31,324 nt of DNA, from IMG/VR virus record IMGVR_UViG_3300028559_000136, positions 1 to 31,324 of that record, one strand, 5' to 3'. Below the pieces are notes generated by a model. That model was not told where the DNA came from. It saw only the letters and a list, made by a program, of their open reading frames with translations, and made no database searches. Position numbers and translations under genes: made by a program. Positions 7,653-24,439 of the stretch are shown here, in pieces. How positions within the stretch are numbered: position 1 is the stretch's first letter; every line of letters starts with the position of its first letter. Origin of the DNA: a virus.

Positions 7653-7924
7653 CCCGCAACGGGCTGATCGCCCAGCGCCGACGGGAGGCGGAGGCCGAGG
7701 ATGCGCGCCATACCCTTCGCCGGAAATACGTCTGGTGCTACGGCACCGAGGAGGGCGAGGCGCGGTTCAGCCTGCTGAATCAGGCCGCTATTGCTGACCT
7801 TGTCGCCTGGCACGGCATCGCCGCCCGAGGCTCGGCCGCCTTTAACCCGGGTGAACCCGACTGGTCCCGGACGGCGGTTCAGGCCGCTCGCGGGGCGCTG
7901 GCTGACCTCCGGGCCGACCGATGA
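7649..7924 (+). CDS. Hypothetical protein (91 aa)
   Basis: The start chosen is GTG 7649, which overlaps the upstream TGA (GTGA); an in-frame ATG at 7610 lies inside the RuvC-like gene and is unlikely. The 91-residue product begins MTRNGLIAQRRREAEAEDAR and contains VWCYGTEEGEARFSLLNQAA. It is mostly helical and basic at the N-terminus. The stop overlaps the MT-A70 start by 4 nt. No family is recognised. Confidence 0.6.
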   Translation: MTRNGLIAQRRREAEAEDARHTLRRKYVWCYGTEEGEARFSLLNQAAIADLVAWHGIAARGSAAFNPGEPDWSRTAVQAARGALADLRADR

Positions 7925-8580
7925 CCGCGCCTCTGCCTATAGGCCCGTTCCGGGTCATATCGGCTGACCCGCCGTGGCCCTTCGAGACCTTCTCTGACGC
8001 GGGTAAGGGCAAGAGCCCCGAACGCCACTACCCCACGATGGCGGTCGATGAACTCTGCGCCATGCCGGTCCGGGACGTTGCGGCCGACGACTGCGCCCTG
8101 TTCATCTGGACGACCTGGCCGAACATTTTCAACACCGAGAAGGTCATCAAGGCCTGGGGCTTCCGCTACAGCGGCCTCGCCTGGGAGTGGATCAAGCGGA
8201 ACCCGACCACCGGCAAGTATGCCTTCGGCGGCGGATACGGGACGCGGAAGAACCTGGAGCCATGCCTGCTGGCGACGCGCGGCTCGCCCCGGGTCCTGAA
8301 CCGATCCGTCAGGGACTTCCTCTATGCCCAGCGCCGGGAACACAGCCGGAAGCCTGACGAGCATTTCGAGAGGGTCGAGACGCTGTATCGAGGCCCGTAT
8401 CTGGAACTATTCAGCCGGGAGGCGCGGCCGGGCTGGGCTTCGTGGGGGAATGAGGTTGATCGCTTCAGCCCCGAAGGGGACCGGGGCAAGCCGCCAAGCA
8501 CCACCCCGGTCCTAAGCCCTGTCCACGTGAAGAACCGCGAGAGATCAGCGGGCGCGGAAACCCAGGGCCTGTTCGACTGA
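7921..8580 (+). CDS. MT-A70 family DNA N6-adenine methyltransferase
   Basis: This 219-residue protein shows the MT-A70 pattern. A short N-terminal strand FRVISADPPWPFET carries the catalytic DPPW at residues 16-19. LFIWTTWPN and GFRYSGLAWEWIKR follow, then GGGYGTRKNLEPCLLATRG, and PYLELFSREARPGWASWGNE near the end. Such enzymes transfer a methyl group from S-adenosylmethionine to adenine N6 in DNA, and phage versions often protect the genome from host restriction. The basic tail after residue 180 is probably disordered. The start overlaps the previous stop as ATGA. About 130 bases without a gene follow before the HNH gene. Confidence 0.92.
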   Translation: MTAPLPIGPFRVISADPPWPFETFSDAGKGKSPERHYPTMAVDELCAMPVRDVAADDCALFIWTTWPNIFNTEKVIKAWGFRYSGLAWEWIKRNPTTGKYAFGGGYGTRKNLEPCLLATRGSPRVLNRSVRDFLYAQRREHSRKPDEHFERVETLYRGPYLELFSREARPGWASWGNEVDRFSPEGDRGKPPSTTPVLSPVHVKNRERSAGAETQGLFD

Positions 8581-12588: not shown

Positions 12589-14031
12589 TCAGGCCCCTTT
12601 CTTGAGAGTGAGGACGACGGTGTTGACGTTGGTGCCGGACTCGGCAAACGACCCCGGCGGGAGGTCCCGGAAGCGGCCGCCCATGCGCTCAACGAGGGAG
12701 CGGAAGGCGACGGTCTGGCGGTCTTCCCGATACTCGACACCGGCCGCCATGATGGCCGCCAGCTTCCCGCCGGGCTTCAGGAACTTCAGGGCGTGCAGGA
12801 CGTGGTCGACATCCCGACCACGGTCGAAGGGCGGGTTCATAGCCACCGCGTCGAACAGACCGAGGTCCGCCTGCGTCGTCTCCAGGAAGTCAGCCCGGCG
12901 GACGATGACGCGCGCCGTATGGGGGCCAACAGCGCGAACCGCATCCATAAGGCCGGAGGCGAGTTCAGGCTGGGCCTCGACGCAGAACACGTCGTGACCG
13001 GCGGCGACGGCGGGAAGGGCGATCCGGCCGCGACCGGCGCTCGGCTCCAGGACCCGGAGGCGCGGGTATCCCCGGCCGCTATAGGTGTCCGGCGTATAGA
13101 CCCCGGCGTCGTTCAGAAGGCGCAGGGCCAGCTTCTCGGGCGTCTCGAATAGGCCGAAGTTTTTCGCCGGGCCGACCGCGTTCCGGTGCTGTGGCTCGGC
13201 GGCGTCAGGGCCGACGCCAAGCCCGGCGCCGTAGTAGTCGGCCAGCAGGAGGTTGACCTTCGTCACGAGGTCCTTCCGCTTGAACCAGAGGTGGACGTTT
13301 CCATTCTTGAACGACCGGATCAGGAAATACTCGTCCTCGGCCTCGAAGGCCTGACGCGACAGGGTCCGCCCGGCGGCCCGGCGCTCGGTCTCCCAAGTCC
13401 CAATGATCCCGGCCGTCCGGTTCGGCTGCGGCTTGCCACCGTCTAGGGCATAGAACGCCCGCTCGACGTCCCGAAGGACCTCGTCCTGAGACCGGCTCCA
13501 GCCGCCCCAATCGGATATGGCCCCGGACAGGACGACCCGGCTCCCGATCTTGAACCCGTCGTGAGACCGGAACCGTCGGTCGAGGCCCGAGAAGGCGAGG
13601 GCGACGCCCCGCTGGAAGATCAGGCCCCGGTCCCCGATCAGCTTCGAGAACGTCGCGTAACAGGTCTCCGCCGTGGCCTCAGGCGGGTCCACGGCAAGCT
13701 GGGCGCGGAACTGATCCCGGGCGGTCCGGTCCATGATCCGCTCCAGCTCCATAAAGTCGATCAGGAAGGTCCAGACGGCGCGGTCGGTCGTCTTCCTGAC
13801 CGTCTCCAGATACCAGTCGCGAGGGTCGGCGCCGTGGGGCGGCCGGTCATTACGGTCCTGAAGTCGCTCCGCAGCCGCGTGGGGGCCGTTCCCGGCCTTT
13901 TGGGATACCGCAGCCGCCGACGCCTCGAAGGCCCCTGCAAGGGCGTCAAACGCGGCCGCGTGAAGGTCCAGCGCCCGTTGGCGTCGGCGCTCGACGTCGG
14001 CGATGGTCGCGCGGGAGATCAGGTCAGGCAT
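12589..14031 (-). CDS. DUF4942 and class I SAM-dependent DNA methyltransferase (N6-adenine type)
   Basis: This 480-residue protein joins an N-terminal DUF4942-type region to a C-terminal methyltransferase domain. The first includes VWTFLIDFMELERIMDRTAR and the signature NGNVHLWFKRKDLVTKVNLL near residues 245-270. The second, from about residue 300, carries the SAM-binding motif LRVLEPSAGRGRIALPAVAA, the acidic motif FCVEAQPEL, and catalytic DAVAMNPPFDRGRDVDHVLH. NPPF is typical of amino-methyltransferases acting on adenine N6 (or cytosine N4). HALKFLKPGGKLAAIMAAGV follows as expected. It probably modifies phage DNA against host restriction. The start follows a CGCCAA...GAGAGAACC leader. DUF4942 function is unknown. 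Confidence 0.87.
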   Translation of the reverse strand: MPDLISRATIADVERRRQRALDLHAAAFDALAGAFEASAAAVSQKAGNGPHAAAERLQDRNDRPPHGADPRDWYLETVRKTTDRAVWTFLIDFMELERIMDRTARDQFRAQLAVDPPEATAETCYATFSKLIGDRGLIFQRGVALAFSGLDRRFRSHDGFKIGSRVVLSGAISDWGGWSRSQDEVLRDVERAFYALDGGKPQPNRTAGIIGTWETERRAAGRTLSRQAFEAEDEYFLIRSFKNGNVHLWFKRKDLVTKVNLLLADYYGAGLGVGPDAAEPQHRNAVGPAKNFGLFETPEKLALRLLNDAGVYTPDTYSGRGYPRLRVLEPSAGRGRIALPAVAAGHDVFCVEAQPELASGLMDAVRAVGPHTARVIVRRADFLETTQADLGLFDAVAMNPPFDRGRDVDHVLHALKFLKPGGKLAAIMAAGVEYREDRQTVAFRSLVERMGGRFRDLPPGSFAESGTNVNTVVLTLKKGA

Positions 14032-15952: not shown

Positions 15953-16176
15953 GCCGTCACCGAGACAAGGGCGGTCAGGCCCGCGAAGGCCTTCAGGGCG
16001 CGCTCGACCCCGGCGAGGTCGTCGAACCAGCGGCACTGACCGAACCCGGCCGACCGCGTCGCAAGGCGGGTCGAGGCGACGCACCACCGGCCCGCGATCT
16101 TGCTGGCGTAATAGGCGGTGCCGCGATGATCGACCGAGAAGGCCGGGCCGCGCGGGGTGTCGTGCTGGACGATCAC
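15949..16176 (-). CDS. Hypothetical protein (75 aa)
   Basis: It starts at GTG 16176, overlapping the TGA of the C5-methyltransferase-like gene (GTGA). The in-frame extension to 16323 lies wholly within that gene. The product begins MIVQHDTPRGPAFSVDHRGT. It has a strand-rich first half (AYYASKIAGRWCVASTRLAT) and a helical end (GVERALKAFAGLTALVSVTA). No family is recognised. Confidence 0.55.
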   Translation of the reverse strand: MIVQHDTPRGPAFSVDHRGTAYYASKIAGRWCVASTRLATRSAGFGQCRWFDDLAGVERALKAFAGLTALVSVTA

Positions 16177-16931
16177 AGCGCCGCTCCCGCTCTGACGCGG
16201 CAGAACTGATAGATCGCCTCTGCCAAAGCCGCCGCAATTCCGGGATAGGTCTCGGAGCGGACTGACCAGCGGTCGTCCCCGGGGGTCTCCCGGTTCTGAC
16301 CGCCGTCGGTCTGATTTCCCCAACGCGGCCTCGGGCCGGTCGGGGTCTCCACCCAGCGCGGCGCTACATAGGCGGCTGGATCACGGGGTAGGTGAAGCGG
16401 GACCTTCCGGCCCTCGCGGTTGAACGCCCACAAGCACGTCGCCTTGCTGGCGTCGGCTCCGAACTCATAGGGCTGGACCACGTCACAGGGTCGGCCATAG
16501 CCGGGGAGACGTGTCGAGATAGTGCCCCGAGGGTTCTCGACTATCTTTAGAACCAGCGGCGCGAGCCGGATGCGCTCCAGATCGGCCTCGGCGGCGGCTC
16601 TGGCGGCCCGGCGCTCAGCACCGACCAGCGTACCGGGCTTCACCCTCTGATGATAGCCGCCCTTGTCCGGGTAGCGGTCAAGGTCCGGGTCCGCGAAGGC
16701 CCAAGCTGCCGCGACGACGTGATAGGTACAGGTCGGGTGAAAGAGCCCGGCCGCCCAAGGCCGTCCTGAGCGGTGGTCGCGCTGGAGATTGTGGAACAGG
16801 TCGCCCTCGATGTGGGGTCCGGGCGAAGCCGTCGCCAGGAGGTCACACGAGATAGCGTCAACGCCCCGGGCCAGTAGCGCGTCGCGCGTCCGGCCGCTGG
16901 ATTCCATGCCGACCAGAACGGGCCCGATCAT
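16173..16931 (-). CDS. C5-cytosine DNA methyltransferase-like phage protein
   Basis: This 252-residue protein follows the layout of a common phage family annotated as DNA cytosine methyltransferase. VLVGMESSGRTRDALLARGV is the SAM-binding loop, and VDAISCDLLAT and HIEGDLF come next. FHPTCTYHVVAAAW holds the candidate catalytic cysteine where many relatives have PPCTYL. LVLKIVENPRGTIS is the ENP/ENV-type motif; DVVQPYEFGADASKATCLWA and RWSVRSETYPGIAAALAEAI follow. In active C5-methyltransferases the Pro-Cys and ENV motifs perform catalysis. Here Pro-Thr-Cys replaces Pro-Pro-Cys, so activity is plausible but unproven. It may supply 5-methylcytosine to the glycosyltransferase system at 18473-22489. 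It overlaps both neighbours by 4 nt. Confidence 0.78.
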   Translation of the reverse strand: MIGPVLVGMESSGRTRDALLARGVDAISCDLLATASPGPHIEGDLFHNLQRDHRSGRPWAAGLFHPTCTYHVVAAAWAFADPDLDRYPDKGGYHQRVKPGTLVGAERRAARAAAEADLERIRLAPLVLKIVENPRGTISTRLPGYGRPCDVVQPYEFGADASKATCLWAFNREGRKVPLHLPRDPAAYVAPRWVETPTGPRPRWGNQTDGGQNRETPGDDRWSVRSETYPGIAAALAEAIYQFCRVRAGAAL

Positions 16932-17005
16932 TCTGCAATCTCGCCTTCAGCGATCAGCTGGACTTCGGCCACCCGGGCGTCCCGGAGCAGTTCGTCACGG
17001 GTCAT
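16928..17005 (-). CDS. Mini-ORF preceding the methyltransferase-like gene (25 aa)
   Basis: A 25-codon frame starts at ATG 17005 with GAGGA about 7 nt upstream, and ends with TGA overlapping the ATG of the methyltransferase-like gene (ATGA). The product begins MTRDELLRDARVAEVQLIAE. It is acidic and helical. The leader hairpin copy at 17024-17040 ends 18 nt before it. It may be a leader peptide coupling translation of the next gene. A longer frame to 17173 exists but has no ribosome-binding site. Confidence 0.5.
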   Translation of the reverse strand: MTRDELLRDARVAEVQLIAEGEIAE

Positions 17006-17023
17006 CGGCTTGTCCTCGATCAG

Positions 17024-17040
17024 GTGGGGCGCTGCCCCGG
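17024..17040 (-). promoter_or_regulatory. Leader hairpin, copy 2
   Basis: Minus-strand CCGGGGCAGCGCCCCAC, identical at all 17 bases to copy 3 (17153-17169) and lying 112 bases from it in inverted orientation. It ends 18 nt before the start at 17005. Confidence 0.6.
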
Positions 17041-17111
17041 TGAGAAGCCAAGCCTTAAAGTGAGCGAGAGCCGACCGCAACACAAAAAGCGGTATCCGGT
17101 GCGGAAAGATC

Positions 17112-17136
17112 GCTTGCGGATACGCAGAAACCGCGT
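17112..17136 (+). promoter_or_regulatory. Shared 25-nt box, copy 3
   Basis: The plus strand shows GCTTGCGGATACGCAGAAAC followed by CGCGT. Compared with copy 2 (14313-14337), GCTTGC and ATACGC are identical and equally spaced. The distance from the box start to the leader hairpin is also almost the same (41-42 nt), so box and hairpin look like one module used twice. Confidence 0.45.
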
Positions 17137-17152
17137 AAAAGGGATCATCAGC

Positions 17153-17169
17153 CCGGGGCAGCGCCCCAC
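17153..17169 (+). promoter_or_regulatory. Leader hairpin, copy 3
   Basis: Plus-strand CCGGGGCAGCGCCCCAC forms GGGGC-AGC-GCCCC. It ends 15 nt before the ATG at 17185 and just ahead of the GGAGAGAC ribosome-binding site. Confidence 0.6.
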
Positions 17170-17184
17170 TCACGGAGAGACAAG

Positions 17185-17484
17185 ATGACCACCGCCCTTG
17201 CCACTATCCCGGCCCTGCCCGCCGCCGCCAAGAGAGAACCCGCCATGACCTATCGCACCATTCCCGCCTTCGCGATTCTGGACGCCGACACCAACCTCGA
17301 CGCCAGCCTGCTCCTGCCCCCCGACGTTGACGCTGACACCACCGATCCCCGCGTCTTCATCCATGACCGCCACTATGGTGTCAGCATCGGGCTCAACCTG
17401 TCCGACCTCCGCCGCCTCATGGCCGCCGTCGACAAGGCGGCCGACCTGAACACCGACGCTCCCGCCCTGAAGGCCGCCGCATGA
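17185..17484 (+). CDS. Hypothetical protein with two candidate starts (99 or 79 aa)
   Basis: ATG 17185 follows GGAGAGACAAG and gives 99 residues. An in-frame ATG at 17245 follows CGCCAAGAGAGAACCCGCC, another copy of the shared leader, and gives 79 residues. The extra 20 residues (MTTALATIPALPAAAKREPA) look like an unstructured Ala/Pro tail. The main body contains YRTIPAFAILDADTNLDASL and FIHDRHYGVSIGLNLSDLRR, probably a small alpha/beta fold. The stop overlaps the next start (ATGA). It is the first gene of the rightward accessory operon. No family is recognised. Confidence 0.6.
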   Translation: MTTALATIPALPAAAKREPAMTYRTIPAFAILDADTNLDASLLLPPDVDADTTDPRVFIHDRHYGVSIGLNLSDLRRLMAAVDKAADLNTDAPALKAAA

Positions 17485-17720
17485 CCGTCTTCCCCATAAC
17501 CCCCGACGTCCTGACCCGCCTCGCAGGCCTGACGCCCCGGATCATCGCCCGGCGCGAACTCGCGCAGGCCGAACACTCGATCGCCCGCTGCATCAACGCC
17601 CTGACCCGGCCGTGGATCGGATACGGCGACGTCTGGTGGATGAACGTCATGGCCGAGGCCCTGATGCGCGCCGAGGCCGCCGCCGACGTCGCGCGGGCCA
17701 AGCTGGAGGCAATGTCGTGA
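17481..17720 (+). CDS. Hypothetical protein (79 aa)
   Basis: A 79-residue, mostly helical product beginning MTVFPITPDVLTRLAGLTPR. It contains HSIARCINALTRPWIGYGDV and ends DVARAKLEAMS. It overlaps the upstream gene by ATGA and the following mini-ORF by GTGA. No family is recognised; translation is supported by the overlaps. Confidence 0.58.
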   Translation: MTVFPITPDVLTRLAGLTPRIIARRELAQAEHSIARCINALTRPWIGYGDVWWMNVMAEALMRAEAAADVARAKLEAMS

Positions 17721-17818
17721 GCCTGTGCACACCGACCCCCCGCGCCCTCCGGGCCGACGCCCTGACCCATGCCGGGGCGTCCCGCCGTCACCCAGATCGA
17801 AATGTTCTAAGCCGATGA
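17717..17818 (+). CDS. Mini-ORF (33 aa) linking two small genes
   Basis: A 33-codon frame runs from GTG 17717 (GTGA overlap with the previous stop) to TGA at 17816-17818, which overlaps the ATG at 17815 (ATGA). The product begins MSLCTPTPRALRADALTHAG and is Arg-rich. It fills the gap exactly, with start-stop overlaps on both sides, like the mini-ORF at 14926-15024. Function is unknown. Confidence 0.45.
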   Translation: MSLCTPTPRALRADALTHAGASRRHPDRNVLSR

Positions 17819-18015
17819 CCCTCGCCCAAATCAAAACGATCCTGCTCGCCGCCGGGGTCAAGCCCTACGCCCTGACCGACCTGGTCGGGGAGAACGGCAT
17901 CCACGTCTCGTTCGCCGACCTCCCCTCGGACAAGGAAACCGAGGAGCGGCTGGGCGTCCAACTGGCGGGCCACCTCGACGTGACCGACAAGGGCGTCTGG
18001 TTCTTCGCCACCTAA
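17815..18015 (+). CDS. Hypothetical protein (66 aa)
   Basis: The start chosen is ATG 17815, overlapping the mini-ORF stop; an in-frame ATG at 17725 lies inside that mini-ORF. The product begins MTLAQIKTILLAAGVKPYAL. It ends GHLDVTDKGVWFFAT after a charged loop PSDKETEERLG. It resembles a small helix-plus-sheet domain. No family is recognised. Confidence 0.55.
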   Translation: MTLAQIKTILLAAGVKPYALTDLVGENGIHVSFADLPSDKETEERLGVQLAGHLDVTDKGVWFFAT

Positions 18016-18023
18016 CCCCGCGC

Positions 18024-18048
18024 CGCCAAGCGCAAACCGAGAGAGACC
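18024..18048 (+). promoter_or_regulatory. CGCCAA-GAGAGA leader element (clearest plus-strand copy)
   Basis: CGCCAAGCGCAAACC is followed by GAGAGAGACC and, four bases later, the ATG at 18052. The GAGAGA part serves as ribosome-binding site. The upstream CGCCAAGCGC part recurs before the genes starting at 2548 and 6062. Related copies precede 3630, 14031 and 17245. Confidence 0.5.
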
Positions 18049-18051
18049 GAC

Positions 18052-18276
18052 ATGACCGACACCGCCGCCCTGAACGCCTCCTACGATGTCTTCGCCCCCT
18101 CGGGCCTGAAGCTGGTCACGATCCACACCTGTATGCTGCTGACCGACCTCCTCGGCTGCCGCCGGGAAGCCGTGGCCCGCATCATCTTGGACGCCCCGAC
18201 CCGTGACGGCTGCACCCTGCACGGCAACGGCCGGATGATCCTCGGCTGCGACTTCGTCACCGTCCGGGCCGTCTGA
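18052..18276 (+). CDS. Hypothetical protein (74 aa)
   Basis: A 74-residue product beginning MTDTAALNASYDVFAPSGLK. It contains LVTIHTCMLLTDLLGCRREA and ends LHGNGRMILGCDFVTVRAV. Three cysteines are present but no clear metal motif. It has a strong CGCCAA...GAGAGA leader and overlaps the next gene (TGATG). No family is recognised. Confidence 0.58.
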   Translation: MTDTAALNASYDVFAPSGLKLVTIHTCMLLTDLLGCRREAVARIILDAPTRDGCTLHGNGRMILGCDFVTVRAV

Positions 18277-18476
18277 TGAAGAACAAACACCCCGGCCCCT
18301 GCCGCGCCTGTAACGAGACCGTCGAGGTCGGGGCCGGGGTCTATGAGAAGAACCCGGCCGGTGGTCGCGGCTGGAATCTCCATCGCCGCTGCGCCACGCG
18401 CGCCCGGCTCGCCTCCGGTGGTTCGTCCATCCTCTCGGCCGCCCAGCTGGCCTCCCTTCAGGACCTTAAGCCATGA
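18276..18476 (+). CDS. Small zinc-ribbon-like protein (66 aa)
   Basis: A 66-residue basic product beginning MKNKHPGPCRACNETVEVGA. Cys9-x2-Cys12 and a later His-x3-Cys (NLHRRCATRARLA) could form a single zinc site. The spacing and the GVYEKN segment resemble small treble-clef or ribbon proteins. The C-terminus (SSILSAAQLASLQDLKP) is helical. It overlaps both neighbours. A nucleic-acid-binding role is possible but not shown. Confidence 0.58.
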   Translation: MKNKHPGPCRACNETVEVGAGVYEKNPAGGRGWNLHRRCATRARLASGGSSILSAAQLASLQDLKP

Positions 18477-19429
18477 AAATCCTCGTGGCCGGTGGTGCCG
18501 GTTTCCTCGGCTCTCACCTCTGTGACCGGCTCACCCGGGAGGGGCACGACGTCACGGCCTTGGACAACCTGATGACGGGTCGGCTCCAGAACCTGACGAA
18601 CGCTGAAGCATCACTCAGCTTCAGTTTCTGGAGTCACGACGTGACCGAGCCCCTCCCCTCGTGGGTCCTGCGGGAGAGGTTCGACCGCATCTATAACCTC
18701 GCCTGCCCGGCCTCCCCGCCGGTCTATCAGCGGAACCCCGAGCACACGATGCTGACGTGTGTGGTCGGGGCCCAGCAGCTCCTGGCCTTGGCGGCCCAGC
18801 ACGGCGCCCGATACCTCCAGGCTTCGACCTCCGAGGTCTATGGAGACCCCGAGGAGCATCCGCAGCGGGAGAGTTACCTCGGGGCCGTGAACGTCACCGG
18901 ACCCCGGGCCTGCTACGACGAGGGCAAGCGGGCCGCCGAGTCGCTCTGCTTGGACTTTGACCGTCACCAGCGGTGCGAGGTCCGGATCGCCCGCATATTC
19001 AACACCTACGGCCCCCGGATGCGCCCGGACGATGGCCGCGTGGTCTCCAGCTTCATCGACCAAGCCCTGAGGGGCGAAGAACTGACGGTGTTCGGACCCG
19101 GTGACCAGACCCGCTCGCTCTGCTACGTTCAGGACACTATCGAGGGCCTCGTGGCTCTGATGGAGCACAACGGCCCTCAGCCCGGGCCGGTGAATATCGG
19201 CAACCCGGCGGAGCTCTCGGTAATGCAGCTGGCGGTCCAGATCATCATGATGACCGGATCACCCTCGATGATCGTCAACCAGCGGCTCCCGCAGGACGAC
19301 CCCCGGCGCCGTTGCCCGGACGTCAGCAAGGCCGCAGCCCTGCTCGGCTGGAAGCCCACCACCAACCTCCAGGACGGCCTGCTTCAGACCATCATCTGGT
19401 GCCAATCTCAACAGGAGACCTCCACATGA
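18473..19429 (+). CDS. NAD-dependent epimerase/dehydratase, UDP-glucuronate decarboxylase (UDP-xylose synthase)-like
   Basis: A 318-residue extended short-chain dehydrogenase. The Rossmann motif GGAGFLG is at residues 7-13. The catalytic region reads ASTSEVYGDPEEHP (Thr119, Glu121) and RACYDEGKRAAESL, with Tyr148 and Lys152. RIARIFNTYGPRMRPDDGRV follows. GPGDQTRSLCYVQD contains Arg214. TSEVYGDP, CYDEGKR and the QTR arginine are characteristic of UDP-xylose synthases, which oxidise and decarboxylate UDP-glucuronate to UDP-xylose. Related epimerases usually vary at these points. Its neighbours include a TAGT-type glycosyltransferase 1.7 kb downstream, for which it may make the sugar donor. It overlaps the gene on each side by 4 nt. 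Substrate is inferred from sequence. Confidence 0.87.
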   Translation: MKILVAGGAGFLGSHLCDRLTREGHDVTALDNLMTGRLQNLTNAEASLSFSFWSHDVTEPLPSWVLRERFDRIYNLACPASPPVYQRNPEHTMLTCVVGAQQLLALAAQHGARYLQASTSEVYGDPEEHPQRESYLGAVNVTGPRACYDEGKRAAESLCLDFDRHQRCEVRIARIFNTYGPRMRPDDGRVVSSFIDQALRGEELTVFGPGDQTRSLCYVQDTIEGLVALMEHNGPQPGPVNIGNPAELSVMQLAVQIIMMTGSPSMIVNQRLPQDDPRRRCPDVSKAAALLGWKPTTNLQDGLLQTIIWCQSQQETST

Positions 19430-19641
19430 ACGCTGCCGCCTATCGCGCCGCCCTTGCGACCCTGAACCTGACCCAGGAGGCCGCCGGGCGCTGGCTCGGG
19501 GTCTCCCGCAGGACGGCCCAGAAATACGCCGCAGACGGCCCTACGCCGCCCGCCGCCCGGGCCATCGACATGCTCCTCCGCATGGGTCCGGCCCTGTCGA
19601 CCAGCGCCCTGACGTGGCCCCACCCCGGCGAGAAAGCCTGA
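19426..19641 (+). CDS. Small Cro/XRE-type HTH protein (71 aa)
   Basis: It starts at ATG 19426 with AGGAGA upstream and overlaps the epimerase stop (ATGA). The 71-residue product reads ALATLNLTQEAAGRWLGVSR and then RTAQKYAADGPTPPAARAID. The TQ...LGVSRRTAQKY..DG.TPP pattern is typical of small phage and plasmid HTH proteins. It could autoregulate the operon. The DNA-binding fold is fairly confident; the target is unknown. Confidence 0.72.
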   Translation: MNAAAYRAALATLNLTQEAAGRWLGVSRRTAQKYAADGPTPPAARAIDMLLRMGPALSTSALTWPHPGEKA

Positions 19642-19644
19642 GCC

Positions 19645-20160
19645 ATGACCGAACCCCTCTGGACCGTTCACGACGCCGTCCTCGGCGTCACCATCGGCGA
19701 GCCCCGCAGCCGCGCCGAGGCCGAGGCTGACGCCACCGGCACCACTATCGAAGCAGGCCGCAACGGCCAGTGCGTCGCCCAGCCGGACGGCCGCGACCGC
19801 TTCCTCGTCCGCCGGGTTCCTCCCGCCCGCGCCCCGGAATCCGCCTACACGACCCTCCAGGTCGAGGCGGCCCTTTGCCTTTACGAGGCGATGATCGACG
19901 CCCGGATGGATTCGACGTCCCCGGCTTTCGAGGACGCGGGGTCGCTGACGATGCGCCACCACGCCATCGCGTTGGCGCCCTATGCCCTCGCCGTCTTCGA
20001 ACTGATCCCCGAGGAGACCCGGTTCGGCCATGCCTATGATTTCGGCATCATCCCGGCGATCCTCAACACCGTAATCTGGAACCACGCTGGGTATCTCCTG
20101 CCGGACGTTGAGACCGCCCGGGATGCGGTCGTCGAGGCCTTGGCGGCAGAGGTCGACTGA
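19645..20160 (+). CDS. Hypothetical protein (171 aa)
   Basis: A 171-residue acidic protein starting three bases after the HTH gene. The first 60 residues are strand-rich (MTEPLWTVHDAVLGVTIGEP). The remainder is helical, with LQVEAALCLYEAMIDARMDS, LTMRHHAIALAPYALAVFEL and AILNTVIWNHAGYLLPDVET. I looked for an iron/2-oxoglutarate oxygenase H-x-D...H pattern and saw none. The stop overlaps the next ATG (TGATG). No family is recognised. Confidence 0.58.
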   Translation: MTEPLWTVHDAVLGVTIGEPRSRAEAEADATGTTIEAGRNGQCVAQPDGRDRFLVRRVPPARAPESAYTTLQVEAALCLYEAMIDARMDSTSPAFEDAGSLTMRHHAIALAPYALAVFELIPEETRFGHAYDFGIIPAILNTVIWNHAGYLLPDVETARDAVVEALAAEVD

Positions 20161-20399
20161 TGCCGCTCTCGCTAAACCCTACTCACGAACAGCGGGAAAT
20201 GATTTTCGCCTCGACCGACTTCGAGGGTGACCTGTTCGAGGTCGAGACGTCGATGCGCGAGCCGGGCTGGTTCATGTATGTCGGCACGTCGAACCCCCAG
20301 GGCTCCTACCTGACGACCGAACAGGCCCGCAGCCTTGCGGCTGCCTTGTTACAGGCGGCGGACGTCATCGACGCCCGGAACGGGGAGGCCGGGGCGTGA
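20160..20399 (+). CDS. Hypothetical protein (79 aa)
   Basis: A 79-residue product beginning MPLSLNPTHEQREMIFASTD. It contains FEVETSMREPGWFMYVGTSN and ends with a helix around EQARSLAAALLQAADVIDAR, suggesting strands followed by a long helix. It overlaps the upstream gene by TGATG. Eighty-eight bases without a gene follow, holding the hairpin before the ParB-like gene. No family is recognised. Confidence 0.58.
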   Translation: MPLSLNPTHEQREMIFASTDFEGDLFEVETSMREPGWFMYVGTSNPQGSYLTTEQARSLAAALLQAADVIDARNGEAGA

Positions 20400-20454
20400 C
20401 CCGACTAGCCCGAGCAGTCGTCGCCCCGGCGTGACGCCCGGCCCGGCTCCTGCT

Positions 20455-20489
20455 ATCTGGGTTCTCCGCCACACGCAGAGAACCCAGAT
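20455..20489 (+). promoter_or_regulatory. Hairpin covering the ribosome-binding site and start codon of the ParB-like gene
   Basis: ATCTGGGTTCTC (20455-20466) and GAGAACCCAGAT (20478-20489) are perfect inverted repeats with an 11-nt loop. The right arm contains the GAGAA ribosome-binding site and the first two bases of the ATG at 20488. In mRNA this stem would hide the start; in DNA it could be an operator. Geometry is certain, function inferred. Confidence 0.6.
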
Positions 20490-21138
20490 GCAGATTGAAC
20501 CCCGGGCCGTCGCCTCCCTCGTCCCCTATGCCCGAAACAGCCGGACCCACAGCGAGGCCCAGGTCCAGCAGATCGCGGCCAGTATCACCGAGTTCGGCTT
20601 CACGAACCCCGTCCTGATCGACGCCGGGGGCGGTATTATCGCGGGCCACGGCCGCGTCCTCGCCGCGCAGGCCCTTGGGCTCCCCGAAGTCCCTGTGATC
20701 GTTCTAGCCCACCTGTCCGAGGCCCAGCGGCGTGCTTACGTCATCGCGGATAACCGGCTGGCGGAGAACAGCGGCTGGGACCTGGACCTCCTGCGGGTCG
20801 AACTGCTCGACCTCGGCAGCGAACTGGACCTGGACGTGCTGGGCTTCGGTGATAAACTCCAGAACTTCCTGCTTGAGCGGCAGGAAGGGGAGAACGACCC
20901 GGCCGAACATTGGCAGGGGATGCCCTCCTTCGAAAACGAGGACAAGACACCCTTTAGGTCAATCGTCGTCCACATGAAGGATCAGGCTTCGGTCGACGCC
21001 TTCGCCAAGCTGACCGGCCGGACCTTCACCGACAAGACGAAGTTCATGTGGTTCCCGGAAATCGAGATCGAGACCTATGCCGACAAGCGGTATGTCTCGG
21101 AGGGCGAGCCGGACGAGCCGGAAGACCTGGCCGGATAG
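20488..21138 (+). CDS. Stand-alone ParB/sulfiredoxin-like nuclease-domain protein
   Basis: This 216-residue protein has an N-terminal ParB-like domain at about residues 5-110. Segments are LVPYARNSRTHSEAQVQQIA, ITEFGFTNPVLIDAGGGIIA, GHGRVLAAQALG (the GHGR box at 53-56) and RRAYVIADNRLAENSGWDLD. In many phages such a domain is joined to a DNA methyltransferase, but here it is followed by a different C-terminal region. That region reads PFRSIVVHMKDQASVDAFAK, TFTDKTKFMWFP and a short acidic tail. ParB-like proteins of this type often lie next to DNA-modifying genes and are thought to recognise or nick DNA, or to couple NTP use to modification. It lies five bases before the TAGT gene. The start is set by the ATG at the hairpin. 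Confidence 0.83.
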   Translation: MQIEPRAVASLVPYARNSRTHSEAQVQQIAASITEFGFTNPVLIDAGGGIIAGHGRVLAAQALGLPEVPVIVLAHLSEAQRRAYVIADNRLAENSGWDLDLLRVELLDLGSELDLDVLGFGDKLQNFLLERQEGENDPAEHWQGMPSFENEDKTPFRSIVVHMKDQASVDAFAKLTGRTFTDKTKFMWFPEIEIETYADKRYVSEGEPDEPEDLAG

Positions 21139-21143
21139 CCGCC

Positions 21144-22040
21144 GTGCCTCAGCCTCAGTTTCCCATCTATATCCCCACCAAGGGCCGCCACGAGGGCCGA
21201 GTGACTATCCGGCTGCTGGAGCGGCTCGGGGTCCCATTCTTCGCGGTGGTCGAGGCCCAGGAACTGGAGGCGTATGCGGCCCACGTCGATCGCTCTCGGC
21301 TCCTCGTTCTGGACCCGGCTTTCCAGCGGGATTACGAGACGTGTGACGACCTTGGCGGCACTAAGAGCCGGGGCTCAGGTCCGGCCCGCAACTTCGCGTG
21401 GGCTCACGCCGAGGCCTCCGGCGCCGCCTTCCATTGGGTCATCGACGACAACATAAACAACTTCTATCGGCTGAACCGGAACACCAAGATCGCCTGCGGA
21501 GACGGGACGCCCCTGCGCGTCATGGAGGACTTCGTCCTGCGCTATCATAACGTCTCGATGGCCGGGCCTCAGTATGAAATGTTCGCCCCCCGCAAGTCCG
21601 GGAGACTCCCGCCCTTCAACGCCAACACCCGGCTGTTCTCCTGCAACCTGATCCGCACCGACGCCCCGTTCCGCTGGCGGGGGCGCTATAACGAAGACCT
21701 GGACCTGTCCCTGCGGATGCTGAAGGCCGGGTGGTGTACGATCCAGTTCAACGCCTTTCTTCAGGACAAGATCAGGACCCAGCACACCAAGGGCGGGAAC
21801 ACCGAGGAACTCTATGGCGAGGGGACGGAATCCAAGTCGGCCATGATCGTCCGCCTGCACCCGGACGTCGCCAAGCTGGCCTATCGGTTCAACCGCGCCC
21901 ATCACGTTGTCGACTTCCGGCCCTTCAAGGCGAACAAGCTGATCCTGAAGCCGGATGTCCAGATCACCCCTGGCGTCAACGAATACGGCATGGCCGTGAA
22001 GACCCTCCCCGGCGCCCGCACAATCAACAGGAGGGTCTGA
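21144..22040 (+). CDS. TET-associated-type glycosyltransferase (TAGT family)
   Basis: The start chosen is GTG 21144, five bases after the ParB stop; the frame upstream lies inside that gene. The 298-residue protein matches the TAGT pattern known from phage DNA hypermodification loci. It has FPIYIPTKGRHEGRVTIRLL and FAVVEAQELEAY, then GSGPARNFAWAHAEASGAAF. HWVIDDNINNFYRL carries a DxD-like DDN at 101-103. FNANTRLFSCNLIR and WRGRYNEDLDLSLRMLKAGW (Glu184, Asp185) follow, then KGGNTEELYGEGT and HPDVAKLAYRFNRAHHVVDF. Members are proposed to attach sugars to oxidised 5-methylcytosine made by TET/JBP enzymes. No TET/JBP gene is visible here. The donor could be UDP-xylose from the 18473 enzyme (inference). 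Confidence 0.87.
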   Translation: MPQPQFPIYIPTKGRHEGRVTIRLLERLGVPFFAVVEAQELEAYAAHVDRSRLLVLDPAFQRDYETCDDLGGTKSRGSGPARNFAWAHAEASGAAFHWVIDDNINNFYRLNRNTKIACGDGTPLRVMEDFVLRYHNVSMAGPQYEMFAPRKSGRLPPFNANTRLFSCNLIRTDAPFRWRGRYNEDLDLSLRMLKAGWCTIQFNAFLQDKIRTQHTKGGNTEELYGEGTESKSAMIVRLHPDVAKLAYRFNRAHHVVDFRPFKANKLILKPDVQITPGVNEYGMAVKTLPGARTINRRV

Positions 22041-22489
22041 TGCAGCCCCGGTTTCCCCTCTACATCGTCAGCAAGGGCCGCTCGGCCTATATGATAACCT
22101 CGAAGGTCCTGACCCGCATGGGCGTCCGGCACTTTGTCGTGGTCGAGCCAGAGCAGGCATCGGACTATAGCGCGGCCGTTGCGTCGATGGGCCTCCTGGC
22201 GGACGTGATCGAAATGGATATGGGCCTGAAGGCCTCGTACGAACTCTGCGACGACCTGGGCCTGACGAAGTCGACCGGCTCCGGCCCCGCCCGGAACTAT
22301 GCCCGCGTCCACCCTGACGTCGCCACTGTCGCCATGCGCTGGGGACGGGTTCACCACCACGTCGATTACTCCGGCTTCAAGCGCCAGAAGCTGATCCTGA
22401 AGCCCGACGCCAAAATACCCCTACAGAATAACGAATATGGTATGAGGCTGGTAACATTACCGCCGAAGGGCGGGCTGGAGCCGATATGA
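22040..22489 (+). CDS. Internally deleted TAGT paralogue (149 aa)
   Basis: This 149-residue product starts at ATG 22040, overlapping the stop of the full-length TAGT (TGATG). Residues 3-87 match residues 5-86 of the first copy (FPLYIVSKGRSAYMITSKVL, VVVEPEQASDY, CDDLGLTKSTGSGPARNYA). The next residues, VHPDVATVAMRWGRVHHHVD onward, match the first copy from residue 238. About 150 residues are missing, including DDN and the RYNED motif. The reading frame is kept, so this is a clean deletion and not a frameshift. Divergence from copy 1 is large enough to suggest long maintenance. It may be a non-catalytic partner, a DNA-binding subunit or a decaying duplicate. Confidence 0.82.
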   Translation: MQPRFPLYIVSKGRSAYMITSKVLTRMGVRHFVVVEPEQASDYSAAVASMGLLADVIEMDMGLKASYELCDDLGLTKSTGSGPARNYARVHPDVATVAMRWGRVHHHVDYSGFKRQKLILKPDAKIPLQNNEYGMRLVTLPPKGGLEPI

Positions 22490-23007
22490 CCGACGAGCCT
22501 GAACCTTTGAGCCCCTCCCCTATAAAAGGGGCCGGTGGTCGGCCACCTCTCCTGAAGGCTGACGAAAAGACTTTGGCGCAGCTTGCGGGCCTCGGCTCGA
22601 TCCAGGCGAGCGAGCGGGAGGTCCAGGCGGTGTTCCGCGTGAGCCAGCCGACCCTGACGAAGTTTTTCAAGGACAACCCGGCCGCCCGGGAGGCCTACGA
22701 GGACGGCAAGGGTCAGGGGAAGATGAGCCTGCGCCGTCGTCAGTGGGCGATGGCCGAGAAGAACGTCGCCATGCAAATCTGGCTCGGGAAGCAATGGCTG
22801 GGCCAATCCGACCGGCAGGCGCATGAACACACCGGCAAGGACGGACGGCCTATCGAGACCGTCGACCTGACCAAACTCTCGACCGAGGAACTCGACGCCT
22901 ATGAACGCCTCTGCATCCGCCTCGGCGCCGAACCTGTTTCAACCGGGGACGCTGGCCGCGATCCGGGCGGAGAGGCTCCGGCGGGAGACGATCCAGAACC
23001 AGTCTGA
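22486..23007 (+). CDS. Terminase small subunit (putative)
   Basis: A 173-residue protein upstream of, and overlapping, the large terminase gene. The N-terminal part has a Lys-Gly-Ala-Gly-Gly-Arg-Pro-Pro basic patch. An HTH-like section follows: QASEREVQAVFRVSQPTLTK, then FFKDNPAAREAYEDGKGQGK. A basic helix LRRRQWAMAEKNVAMQIWLG and QWLGQSDRQAHEHTG are frequent in small terminases and related DNA-binding proteins. The C-terminus is acidic and Gly/Pro-rich. Small terminases bind the packaging site and activate the large subunit. The assignment rests on position plus HTH character, so it is good but not certain. It overlaps the TAGT paralogue (ATGA). Confidence 0.75.
   Translation: MTDEPEPLSPSPIKGAGGRPPLLKADEKTLAQLAGLGSIQASEREVQAVFRVSQPTLTKFFKDNPAAREAYEDGKGQGKMSLRRRQWAMAEKNVAMQIWLGKQWLGQSDRQAHEHTGKDGRPIETVDLTKLSTEELDAYERLCIRLGAEPVSTGDAGRDPGGEAPAGDDPEPV
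22517..22531 (+). repeat. Short perfect inverted repeat CCCCT-ATAAA-AGGGG
   Basis: A 5-bp stem with a 5-base A/T loop, lying within codons 11-16 of the small terminase gene. It stands out as an AT-centred palindrome in GC-rich DNA. It could be part of a packaging recognition site, which in many phages lies in or near the small terminase gene. It could equally be chance. Confidence 0.3.
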
Positions 23008-24439
23008 CCTCGTCGCCCGGTCCGAGGCGATCCGGTTCCGTTGCCAGACCCTATCGGGCTTCGTCCGCGAGGCCTGGTACGTCCTGGAGCCGAGCAACCC
23101 CCTGAAGTGGTCCTGGCACCTGGACGCCATGTGCGACCATCTTCAGGCCGTATCGGAGGGCCGCCTGTCGCCCTGGGGCATCATCAACGTCCCGCCCGGG
23201 TCGTCGAAGTCGATGATCGTCTCGGTGCTGTGGCAGGCCTGGGAGTGGGGGCCGTTCGGAAAGCGGTCGAGCCGATTCCTGACCTCATCCTTCGAACAGG
23301 AGAACGTGAAGCGGGACACGCGGAAGACCCGGGACCTGATCCGGTCGGAATGGTTTCGGACTCTCTGGCCCGAGGTCGTCATGGAACGCGCCGGGGAGAC
23401 GTCGTTCGCGAACAGCGCGACCGGCACCCGGGAGGGCGTCCCCTTCGCCTCGATCACCGGCAAGCGGGGCGACCGCCTGATTATCGACGACCCCCACAGC
23501 CTGAAGGGAGCCGAATCCGAGGCCGAGCGGACCGAGGCCGTGCGTCTGTTCCTGGAGGGCGGCCTGAACCGCCTGAACGACCAGACGACGTCGGCCATCA
23601 TCATCGTCATGCAGCGCCTGCACGAGAAGGACCTGACCGGCGCCCTGCTCGCCCACGACCTCGGGTTCTGGCACCTAATGATCCCTATGGAGGCCGAGCC
23701 CGGCCGGGCCGAGCCGACCCCCCTCGGCTGGGTCGACCCCCGGAAGAACGACGGCGAACTGATGGACCCGGTCAGGATGCCCCGGGAGGCGGTCGACAAG
23801 CTGAAAAACGTCTCGGCCTTCTCCTGGGCCGGTCAATATCAGCAGCGCCCGGTCCCGCGCGAAGGCGGCCTGTTCAAGCGGCACTGGTTCGACGGGAAGA
23901 TCATCAAGGCGGCCCCGGCCGGGACTGTCTGGGTCCGGCATTGGGACCTCGCGGCGACCCGGAAGGCAACGGCCGCCCGCACGGCAGGCGTCAAGATGGG
24001 CCGCACCCCGGACGGGCGATACGTCGTCGGCCACGTCGTGAAGACCCAGGAGGAGGGGGCCGAGGTCCGCCGCCTTATCAGCGCGGTCGCGGCCATCGAC
24101 GGGGTCGAGACGATGATCTCCCTCCCCCAGGACCCGGGCCAGGCGGGCAAGGTCCAGAAGCAGGACTTCGTCGCGGGCCTCGCCGGTTACAACGTCCGGG
24201 CCGAGCCCGAGACCGGGGACAAGGTCACCCGGGCCGAACCGTTCTCGGCGCAGTGTCAGGCAGGCAATGTCACCCTGATCGAGGGGGCCTGGATTAACGA
24301 CTACCTCGACGAACTCTGCGTCTTCCCCTCCGGCACGTTCAAGGATCAGGTCGACGCCTCGTCCGGCGCATTCGGCCGCCTCGTGAAGCCGCAGGCGGCG
24401 GTCGCCCTGTTCGGGACCTACGGCAGCGCCACGCGATAG
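22901..24439 (+). CDS. terL: Terminase large subunit (ATPase and nuclease)
   Basis: A 512-residue protein with the ATPase centre NVPPGSSKSMIVSVLWQAWE (Walker A about residues 96-104). Walker B is DRLIIDDPHSL near 191-201, and a coupling segment TTSAIIIVMQRLHEKDLTGA follows. The C-terminal RNase H-like nuclease part includes VRHWDLAAT, MISLPQDPGQAGK and FKDQVDASSGAF with the expected acidic residues. This motor drives DNA into the procapsid and cuts it. The start at 22901 lies 107 bases inside the small subunit gene; the N-terminal region LFQPGTLAAIRAERLRRETI fits family members, so the overlap appears real. The next downstream start would remove conserved sequence. Confidence 0.95.
   Translation: MNASASASAPNLFQPGTLAAIRAERLRRETIQNQSDLVARSEAIRFRCQTLSGFVREAWYVLEPSNPLKWSWHLDAMCDHLQAVSEGRLSPWGIINVPPGSSKSMIVSVLWQAWEWGPFGKRSSRFLTSSFEQENVKRDTRKTRDLIRSEWFRTLWPEVVMERAGETSFANSATGTREGVPFASITGKRGDRLIIDDPHSLKGAESEAERTEAVRLFLEGGLNRLNDQTTSAIIIVMQRLHEKDLTGALLAHDLGFWHLMIPMEAEPGRAEPTPLGWVDPRKNDGELMDPVRMPREAVDKLKNVSAFSWAGQYQQRPVPREGGLFKRHWFDGKIIKAAPAGTVWVRHWDLAATRKATAARTAGVKMGRTPDGRYVVGHVVKTQEEGAEVRRLISAVAAIDGVETMISLPQDPGQAGKVQKQDFVAGLAGYNVRAEPETGDKVTRAEPFSAQCQAGNVTLIEGAWINDYLDELCVFPSGTFKDQVDASSGAFGRLVKPQAAVALFGTYGSATR

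What the first reader, a model, noticed from the sequence alone, without database searches (positions are those of the whole stretch)
16173..22489. Possible DNA hypermodification cassette: C5-methyltransferase-like, UDP-xylose synthase-like, ParB-like and TAGT genes together
Seen: a C5-methyltransferase-like protein (16173-16931), a UDP-xylose-synthase-like enzyme (18473-19429), a stand-alone ParB-like protein (20488-21138) and a TAGT-type glycosyltransferase (21144-22040) lie within 6.3 kb, directly upstream of the terminases. Known: TAGT proteins are linked to TET/JBP oxidation of 5-methylcytosine and later sugar addition in phages. Inferred: this phage may modify cytosine and attach a pentose from UDP-xylose. 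No TET/JBP gene is visible in the window, so either it lies elsewhere, another enzyme hydroxylates the base, or the sugar acceptor differs. A pentose donor in a TAGT locus would be a distinctive variation.
Basis: partly seen in the sequence, partly recalled or inferred. Interest (0 to 1): 0.82.

Follow-up and report, generated by a model that had tools for sequence, protein, structure and literature searches.

The report
Phage cassette predicted to sugar-coat DNA
This uncultured phage carries, just upstream of its DNA-packaging genes, a cassette that probably attaches a five-carbon sugar (xylose) to its own DNA, a likely shield against bacterial defences, although the enzyme that prepares the attachment point on the DNA is not visible.

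Summary
At the stated coordinates are a TAGT glycosyltransferase (PF20691, E=1e-41, GT-A motifs kept), a true UDP-glucuronate decarboxylase/UDP-xylose synthase (UXS), and a ParB-like protein, on one strand just upstream of the terminase genes. Two corrections. (1) The C5-methyltransferase-like gene is on the other strand and does not travel with the cassette: none of 26 whole records carrying its relatives has a TAGT above cut-off. (2) The ParB-like protein ends in an unnamed domain (WxGMPxF...TxKTxxxWxP) found beside or fused to TAGT in 94 of 98 TET-less TAGT loci. A second TAGT gene (22040-22489) has lost its catalytic core. The pentose link is not a one-off: UXS lies beside TAGT in 12 of 85 viral UXS loci, on at least six separate TAGT branches. 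One relative has UXS-ParB-TET-TAGT-terminase; a sister backbone with 77%-identical UXS carries UXS-ParB-TAGT-TAGT in that slot. Most likely TAGT, targeted by the ParB partner, puts xylose on phage DNA. The acceptor base is unproven: no TET or thymidylate-synthase homologue is in this 31-kb fragment or in most TAGT relatives. A new variant of TAGT-type DNA hypermodification. Nothing here tests the chemistry.

The parts
18473..19429 (+). UDP-glucuronate decarboxylase / UDP-xylose synthase (UXS)
   Evidence: PDB human UXS1 E about 1e-97; catalytic TSEVYG, YDEGK, QTR kept; next to TAGT in 12 of 85 viral UXS loci
19426..20399 (+). three small genes (HTH-like 19426-19641; 19645-20160; 20160-20399) linking UXS to ParB in one same-strand run
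   Evidence: ORFs, spacings of -4 to +88 bases; no family match for 19645-20160
20488..21138 (+). ParB-like CTPase-fold protein, TAGT partner
   Evidence: ParB/Noc fold, Foldseek E=8e-8; N-terminal 97 aa 58-70% identical to the ParB domain of phage DNA methyltransferases
20899..21108 (+). C-terminal WxGMPxF domain (unnamed TAGT-partner domain)
   Evidence: within 2.5 kb of TAGT in 94 of 98 TET-less loci; fused to the N-terminus of TAGT in cultured phages
21144..22040 (+). TAGT glycosyltransferase, intact, GT-A type (DDN and NED motifs kept)
   Evidence: PF20691 E=1.1e-41; invariant residues; GT-A UDP-sugar transferases by Foldseek on a relative's model
22040..22489 (+). second TAGT paralogue, in-frame internal deletion removes all catalytic residues; AGGAGG ribosome site kept
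   Evidence: N part 65% and C part 59% identical to the second TAGT of L251, with about 160 aa missing between; identical in L084; Shine-Dalgarno
22486..24439 (+). terminase small and large subunit genes that follow the cassette (context, not part of the modification step)
   Evidence: PHROG 309 and Terminase_6C
16173..16931 (-). C5-MTase-like protein: NOT judged part of the cassette
   Evidence: PHROG 757 only; PxCT and ENP conserved; no TAGT above cut-off in 26 records with relatives

Best explanation
A DNA-glycosylation cassette expressed with the packaging genes. The phage UXS converts host UDP-glucuronate to UDP-xylose. TAGT, a GT-A enzyme held on phage DNA by its ParB plus WxGMPxF partner, transfers the pentose from UDP-xylose (or a host-made epimer such as UDP-arabinose) to a hydroxyl-bearing base before packaging, shielding the DNA from nucleases. 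Shown by sequence: enzyme identities, gene order, recurrent association, absence of TET here. Inferred: that the acceptor is DNA, that the sugar is xylose, that the base is cytosine, and the protective role.
For: UXS identity and active site. TAGT identity and motifs. UXS within 6 kb of TAGT in 12 of 85 viral UXS loci against 0 of 64 control loci, p=0.001; at least 6 changes on the TAGT tree, 8 by parsimony. UXS often overlaps TAGT by 4 bases (L161, L165, L166, L113). L085: UXS-ParB-TET-TAGT-TerS-TerL. Sister backbone L168 (UXS 77%, TerL 71% identical) carries ParB-WxGMPxF and TAGT-TAGT in the same slot. DNA link of TAGT: ParB domain shared with DNA methyltransferases, TAGT-SNF2 helicase fusion L067, TET next to a TAGT in L266. 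T6 TAGT glucosylates glucosyl-hmC (PMC13216743). Phage DNA pentoses exist (PMC6024577, PMC12838424, PMC13390438).
Against: No enzyme that makes a hydroxyl-bearing base is seen in this record; the record is a fragment, but TET is absent in almost all TAGT relatives too, including 24 of 25 bacterial genomes with TAGT loci. Most viral UXS loci have no TAGT. Transfer was not tested; T6 TAGT acts on a sugar already on the base, so TAGT may be a second-step enzyme.
Confidence: 0.55

Rival explanations
1. Same cassette, but TAGT is a second-step enzyme (as in T6): a first sugar is put on hydroxymethyl- or hydroxy-cytosine by enzymes outside the fragment, and TAGT adds xylose to that sugar.
For: T6 TAGT adds the second glucose (PMC13216743); several relatives carry two TAGTs, a GT32-like domain or TAGT-TAGT fusions; the record is a 31-kb fragment.
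Against: No first-step glycosyltransferase is next to most TAGT loci; the TET-linked L085 cassette has one TAGT only.
Confidence: 0.2
2. UXS serves a host-surface or virion glycan and only happens to lie near TAGT; TAGT uses another host UDP-sugar such as UDP-glucose.
For: Most viral UXS loci lack TAGT; UXS is common in bacterial surface-polysaccharide loci and phage-labelled contigs; several TET-less TAGT loci have no sugar-nucleotide gene.
Against: UXS-TAGT adjacency with overlapping genes on at least six TAGT branches; UXS kept at 77% identity while the core beside it is swapped.
Confidence: 0.17
3. TAGT glycosylates a phage protein (terminase, portal or capsid) rather than DNA; its place upstream of the terminase reflects that.
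For: Conserved place next to TerS/TerL; protein glycosylation of phage virions is known (mentioned in PMC12619734).
Against: ParB domain shared with DNA methyltransferases, TAGT-SNF2 fusion, TET neighbours, T6 activity on DNA; diverse, unrelated terminases follow the module.
Confidence: 0.08

Closest known systems
T6-type TAGT (beta-glucosyl-HMC-alpha-glucosyltransferase, PF20691)
   Same: Same Pfam family and GT-A type; acts on phage DNA
   Different: T6 uses host UDP-glucose on already glucosylated hmC made through dCMP hydroxymethylase; the window has its own UXS and no PF00303 gene
TET/JBP-TAGT hypermodification clusters of phages (Iyer 2013; Pyle 2024; both from memory or citation, not held)
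   Same: TAGT, ParB, late-gene position; L085 is a full member that also has UXS
   Different: No TET in the window; the C5-MTase-like gene is not linked; extra WxGMPxF partner domain; pentose donor gene
RB69/Mosigvirus 5-arabinosyl-cytosine (PMC6024577, PMC13390438)
   Same: Pentose on phage DNA, phage-encoded sugar supply
   Different: Thymidylate-synthase homologue makes 5-hydroxy-dCMP; arabinosyltransferase predicted GT-B; no UXS, ParB or TAGT core
Shewanella phage Thanatos deoxypentose-cytosine (PMC12838424)
   Same: Pentose-type modification and UDP-xylose enzymology in a phage
   Different: UDP-xylose made by a pyrophosphorylase (TH1_063); T4-like dCMP hydroxymethylase-type gene; no TAGT reported
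CmoX/CmoY 5-carboxymethylcytosine system (PMC12783734)
   Same: Alternative, TET-free handle on cytosine, often with a ParB-domain gene nearby
   Different: Amide ligation rather than glycosylation; no CmoA seen among the window's annotated genes (not searched by profile)

Membership tests
TAGT (PF20691) | Profile match above the curated cut-off | tested here: met
   143.5 bits against 27.5
TAGT (PF20691) | GT-A metal/donor motifs (DD..., NED) | tested here: met
   D100, D101, E127 and D184 invariant in 46 sequences and present in the window
TAGT (PF20691) | Sugar transfer to DNA | not testable with these tools
   needs enzyme assay
UDP-xylose synthase (UXS) | Best match to UXS1 well above other SDRs, catalytic S/T-E, YxxxK, R | tested here: met
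TET/JBP-dependent phage hypermodification cluster | TET/JBP dioxygenase in the cluster | tested here: not met
   no PF12851 in the 31-kb record; the record is a fragment
TET/JBP-dependent phage hypermodification cluster | Linked C5-methyltransferase that makes 5mC | tested here: not met
   C5-MTase-like gene present but unlinked in relatives; no PF00145
T-even type (dCMP hydroxymethylase) modification | Thymidylate-synthase-family hydroxymethylase | tested here: not met
   no PF00303 in the record; the record is a fragment
ParB partition protein | ParB/Srx CTPase-type N-domain | tested here: met
   Foldseek to ParB/Noc, E=8e-8; Pfam match just under cut-off
ParB partition protein | Canonical C-terminal parts, and a ParA partner | tested here: inconclusive
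   C-terminus is the WxGMPxF domain instead; no ParA annotated, but not searched by profile
PHROG 757 C5-MTase-like protein | Catalytic Cys (PxC) and ENP/ENV | tested here: met
   61/61 relatives and the window; activity unknown

The most novel reading that the evidence does not exclude
The ParB-WxGMPxF/TAGT core, widespread in phages and prophages without TET or thymidylate-synthase genes, puts sugars on DNA through an acceptor chemistry not yet described (an unknown hydroxylase, or direct glycosylation of an unmodified base), and in this phage the sugar is xylose.
Probability: 0.25. Interest if true: 0.82.

Novelty: new variant of a known kind. Interest (0 to 1): 0.6.

Why it matters
It would add xylose to the sugars that phages put on DNA, explain why some phages carry UDP-xylose synthase genes, and give a defined two-component DNA glycosylation core (ParB-WxGMPxF plus TAGT) present in prophages of culturable bacteria such as Chryseobacterium and Pantoea, so the open question of what TET-less TAGTs do (288 of 753 GT-bearing phages have a solitary TAGT, PMC13216743) becomes directly testable.

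Tried and rejected
C5-MTase-like gene as part of the cassette: rejected. TET/JBP elsewhere in the record: none. Thymidylate-synthase or PF00145 genes as the acceptor maker: none in the record. A 2-oxoglutarate oxygenase in the two cultured Vibrio phages with WxGMPxF-TAGT: no TET and none among the 25 Pfam families shown of 30 matched (five not shown, so not a full exclusion). 'Human faecal phage' contigs with UXS (L096-L100): no ParB/TAGT near UXS, and at least one looks bacterial, so not used. Plasmids: no TAGT relative. NCBIfam: no TAGT or UXS-specific model above cut-off. The PDB has no sequence relative of TAGT. Iyer 2013 is not held, and Pyle 2024 was seen only as a citation, so earlier mention of UXS-TAGT there cannot be excluded; searches of the held library found none.

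Full report
WHAT IS THERE. The window is the whole of one IMG/VR record (31,324 bases, linear, probably a fragment). Its terminase is nearest to those of Erythrobacter and Rhizobium phages, so an alphaproteobacterial host is likely (inference). On the plus strand, UXS (18473-19429), three small genes, ParB-like (20488-21138), TAGT (21144-22040), a second short TAGT (22040-22489), TerS and TerL form one run with small gaps or overlaps (the HTH gene that follows UXS starts at the ATG at 19426, read from the ORF). The C5-MTase-like gene (16173-16931) is on the minus strand.

UXS. The best PDB relatives are human UDP-glucuronate decarboxylase 1 structures at E about 1e-97, with UDP-glucose epimerases far behind at 3e-35. 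The TSEVYG, YDEGK and QTR stretches are intact. No UDP-glucose dehydrogenase or second epimerase was found among the window proteins scanned, so UDP-glucuronate would come from the host and the product would be UDP-xylose (inference from pathway knowledge).

TAGT. PF20691 at 143 bits; residues invariant across 46 relatives (DD, E, NED) are present. A relative's model (pTM 0.86) resembles GT-A, UDP-sugar-using transferases. The second TAGT copy keeps the first 91 and last roughly 55 residues of a paralogue like the second TAGT of L251, but lacks the segment that holds every catalytic acidic residue; it still has an AGGAGG ribosome site and an open frame, and is identical in a second contig of the same phage, L084.

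ParB PARTNER. The N-terminal domain has the ParB/Noc CTPase fold and is 58-70% identical to the ParB domain of phage DNA methyltransferases. The C-terminal 70 residues are a separate domain, W-x-GMP-x-F ... T-x-KT-xxx-W-x-P, without a Pfam match here. In cultured Aeromonas, Tenacibaculum, Pectobacterium and Vibrio phages the same domain is fused to the N-terminus of TAGT; in L113 it stands alone. It lies within 2.5 kb of TAGT in 94 of 98 TET-less loci; three of the four exceptions (L004, L014, L064) have TAGT at a contig start and the fourth is L087. It is absent in the TET-bearing lineage L085/L088. Most TAGT loci of bacterial genomes have it too. The domain is therefore the regular TAGT partner; the ParB part is one of several ways of carrying it.

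IS THE PENTOSE LINK REAL? Starting from UXS alone, 12 of 85 viral UXS loci carry TAGT within the 6-10 kb flanks (window phage L084; L085/L088; L087; L113; L142; L143; L161; L165/L169; L166; L168), against 0 of 64 loci gathered with the C5-MTase-like gene (Fisher p=0.001; some loci are near-duplicates, and the nonredundant count, 10 of 76 against an approximate 0 of 60, gives p=0.002). On the TAGT tree the UXS label needs 8 changes and at least 6 by well-supported branches; on the UXS tree the TAGT label needs 8 and at least 4. In L085 the order is UXS, ParB, TET/JBP (PF12851), TAGT, TerS, TerL. L168 has the same backbone (SSB 63%, UXS 77%, TerS 58%, TerL 71% identical) but a different ParB with the WxGMPxF domain and a TAGT-TAGT fusion instead of TET-TAGT. 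UXS is kept while the core is swapped, which is what one expects if both cores use the UXS product. Other loci have other supply or extension genes: a cytidylyltransferase after TAGT (L070 and others), a different SDR (L048, L058, L065), a GT32-like domain fused to ParB (L161), an SNF2 helicase fused to TAGT (L067).

THE ACCEPTOR. TET was found in 2 of 68 virus or phage records searched (both the same lineage) and in 1 of 25 bacterial genomes holding TAGT loci. The one positive, a Winogradskyella MAG, has a TET/JBP gene within 2 kb of a TAGT that carries an N-terminal extension with a weak partner-domain match, and serves as a positive control for the genome search. Thymidylate-synthase-family genes were found in G022, phiAS5 and Kuja among the virus records and not in the window. 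So either the acceptor enzyme lies outside the fragment, or these phages use a chemistry not yet known. The C5-MTase-like protein keeps a plausible active site (PxCT, ENP in 61/61), but 0 of 26 records with its relatives have a TAGT above cut-off, so it is not evidence for cytosine.

LITERATURE. TAGT is the enzyme that adds a second glucose to glucosyl-hmC in T6, and 288 of 753 phages with such transferases have a solitary TAGT of unknown role (PMC13216743). Pentoses on phage cytosine are known in RB69-like phages and Thanatos through different enzymes (PMC6024577, PMC13390438, PMC12838424). A TET-free handle, 5-carboxymethylcytosine, often with ParB-domain genes nearby, is also known (PMC12783734). 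No held paper found by the searches describes UXS with TAGT, but the two most relevant studies (Iyer 2013; Pyle 2024) could not be read.

VERDICT. Real, recurrent, and most likely a DNA-glycosylation cassette with its own UDP-xylose supply; a new variant of a known kind. Enzyme identities and genomic association are shown; the acceptor, the sugar actually transferred and the protective role are inferred.

Noticed in passing
22040-22489: Second TAGT with an in-frame deletion of its catalytic core but a good ribosome site and open frame: a remnant, or a non-catalytic partner.
   Followed up: partly
L067:1901-4234: TAGT fused to an SNF2-type helicase, followed by a gene that reads like a DNA methyltransferase: an independent sign that TAGT works on DNA.
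   Followed up: partly
L161:3218-4525: GT32-like glycosyltransferase (PF04488) fused to ParB-WxGMPxF, followed by TAGT, UXS and terminase.
   Followed up: partly
L070:8780-9217 and similar loci: Cytidylyltransferase-like gene directly after TAGT in several loci (cluster of 12): another activated donor may be made.
   Followed up: no
L250:7190-9250 (Pantoea stewartii prophage): Genes that read like further glycosyltransferases and a methyltransferase lie just upstream of ParB-WxGMPxF and TAGT; not checked by profile.
   Followed up: no
L087:477-3236: ParB, divergent TAGT and UXS in a virus with very acidic proteins (haloarchaeal-like); ParB lacks the WxGMPxF domain.
   Followed up: partly
12589-14031 (-): DUF4942 fused to a methyltransferase-like domain, and an MT-A70 gene at 7921-8580: the phage also carries adenine-methylase-type genes.
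   Followed up: no
L096-L100: Records labelled faecal 'Bacteriophage sp.' with UXS but no ParB or TAGT near it; L096 reads like bacterial chromosome.
   Followed up: partly
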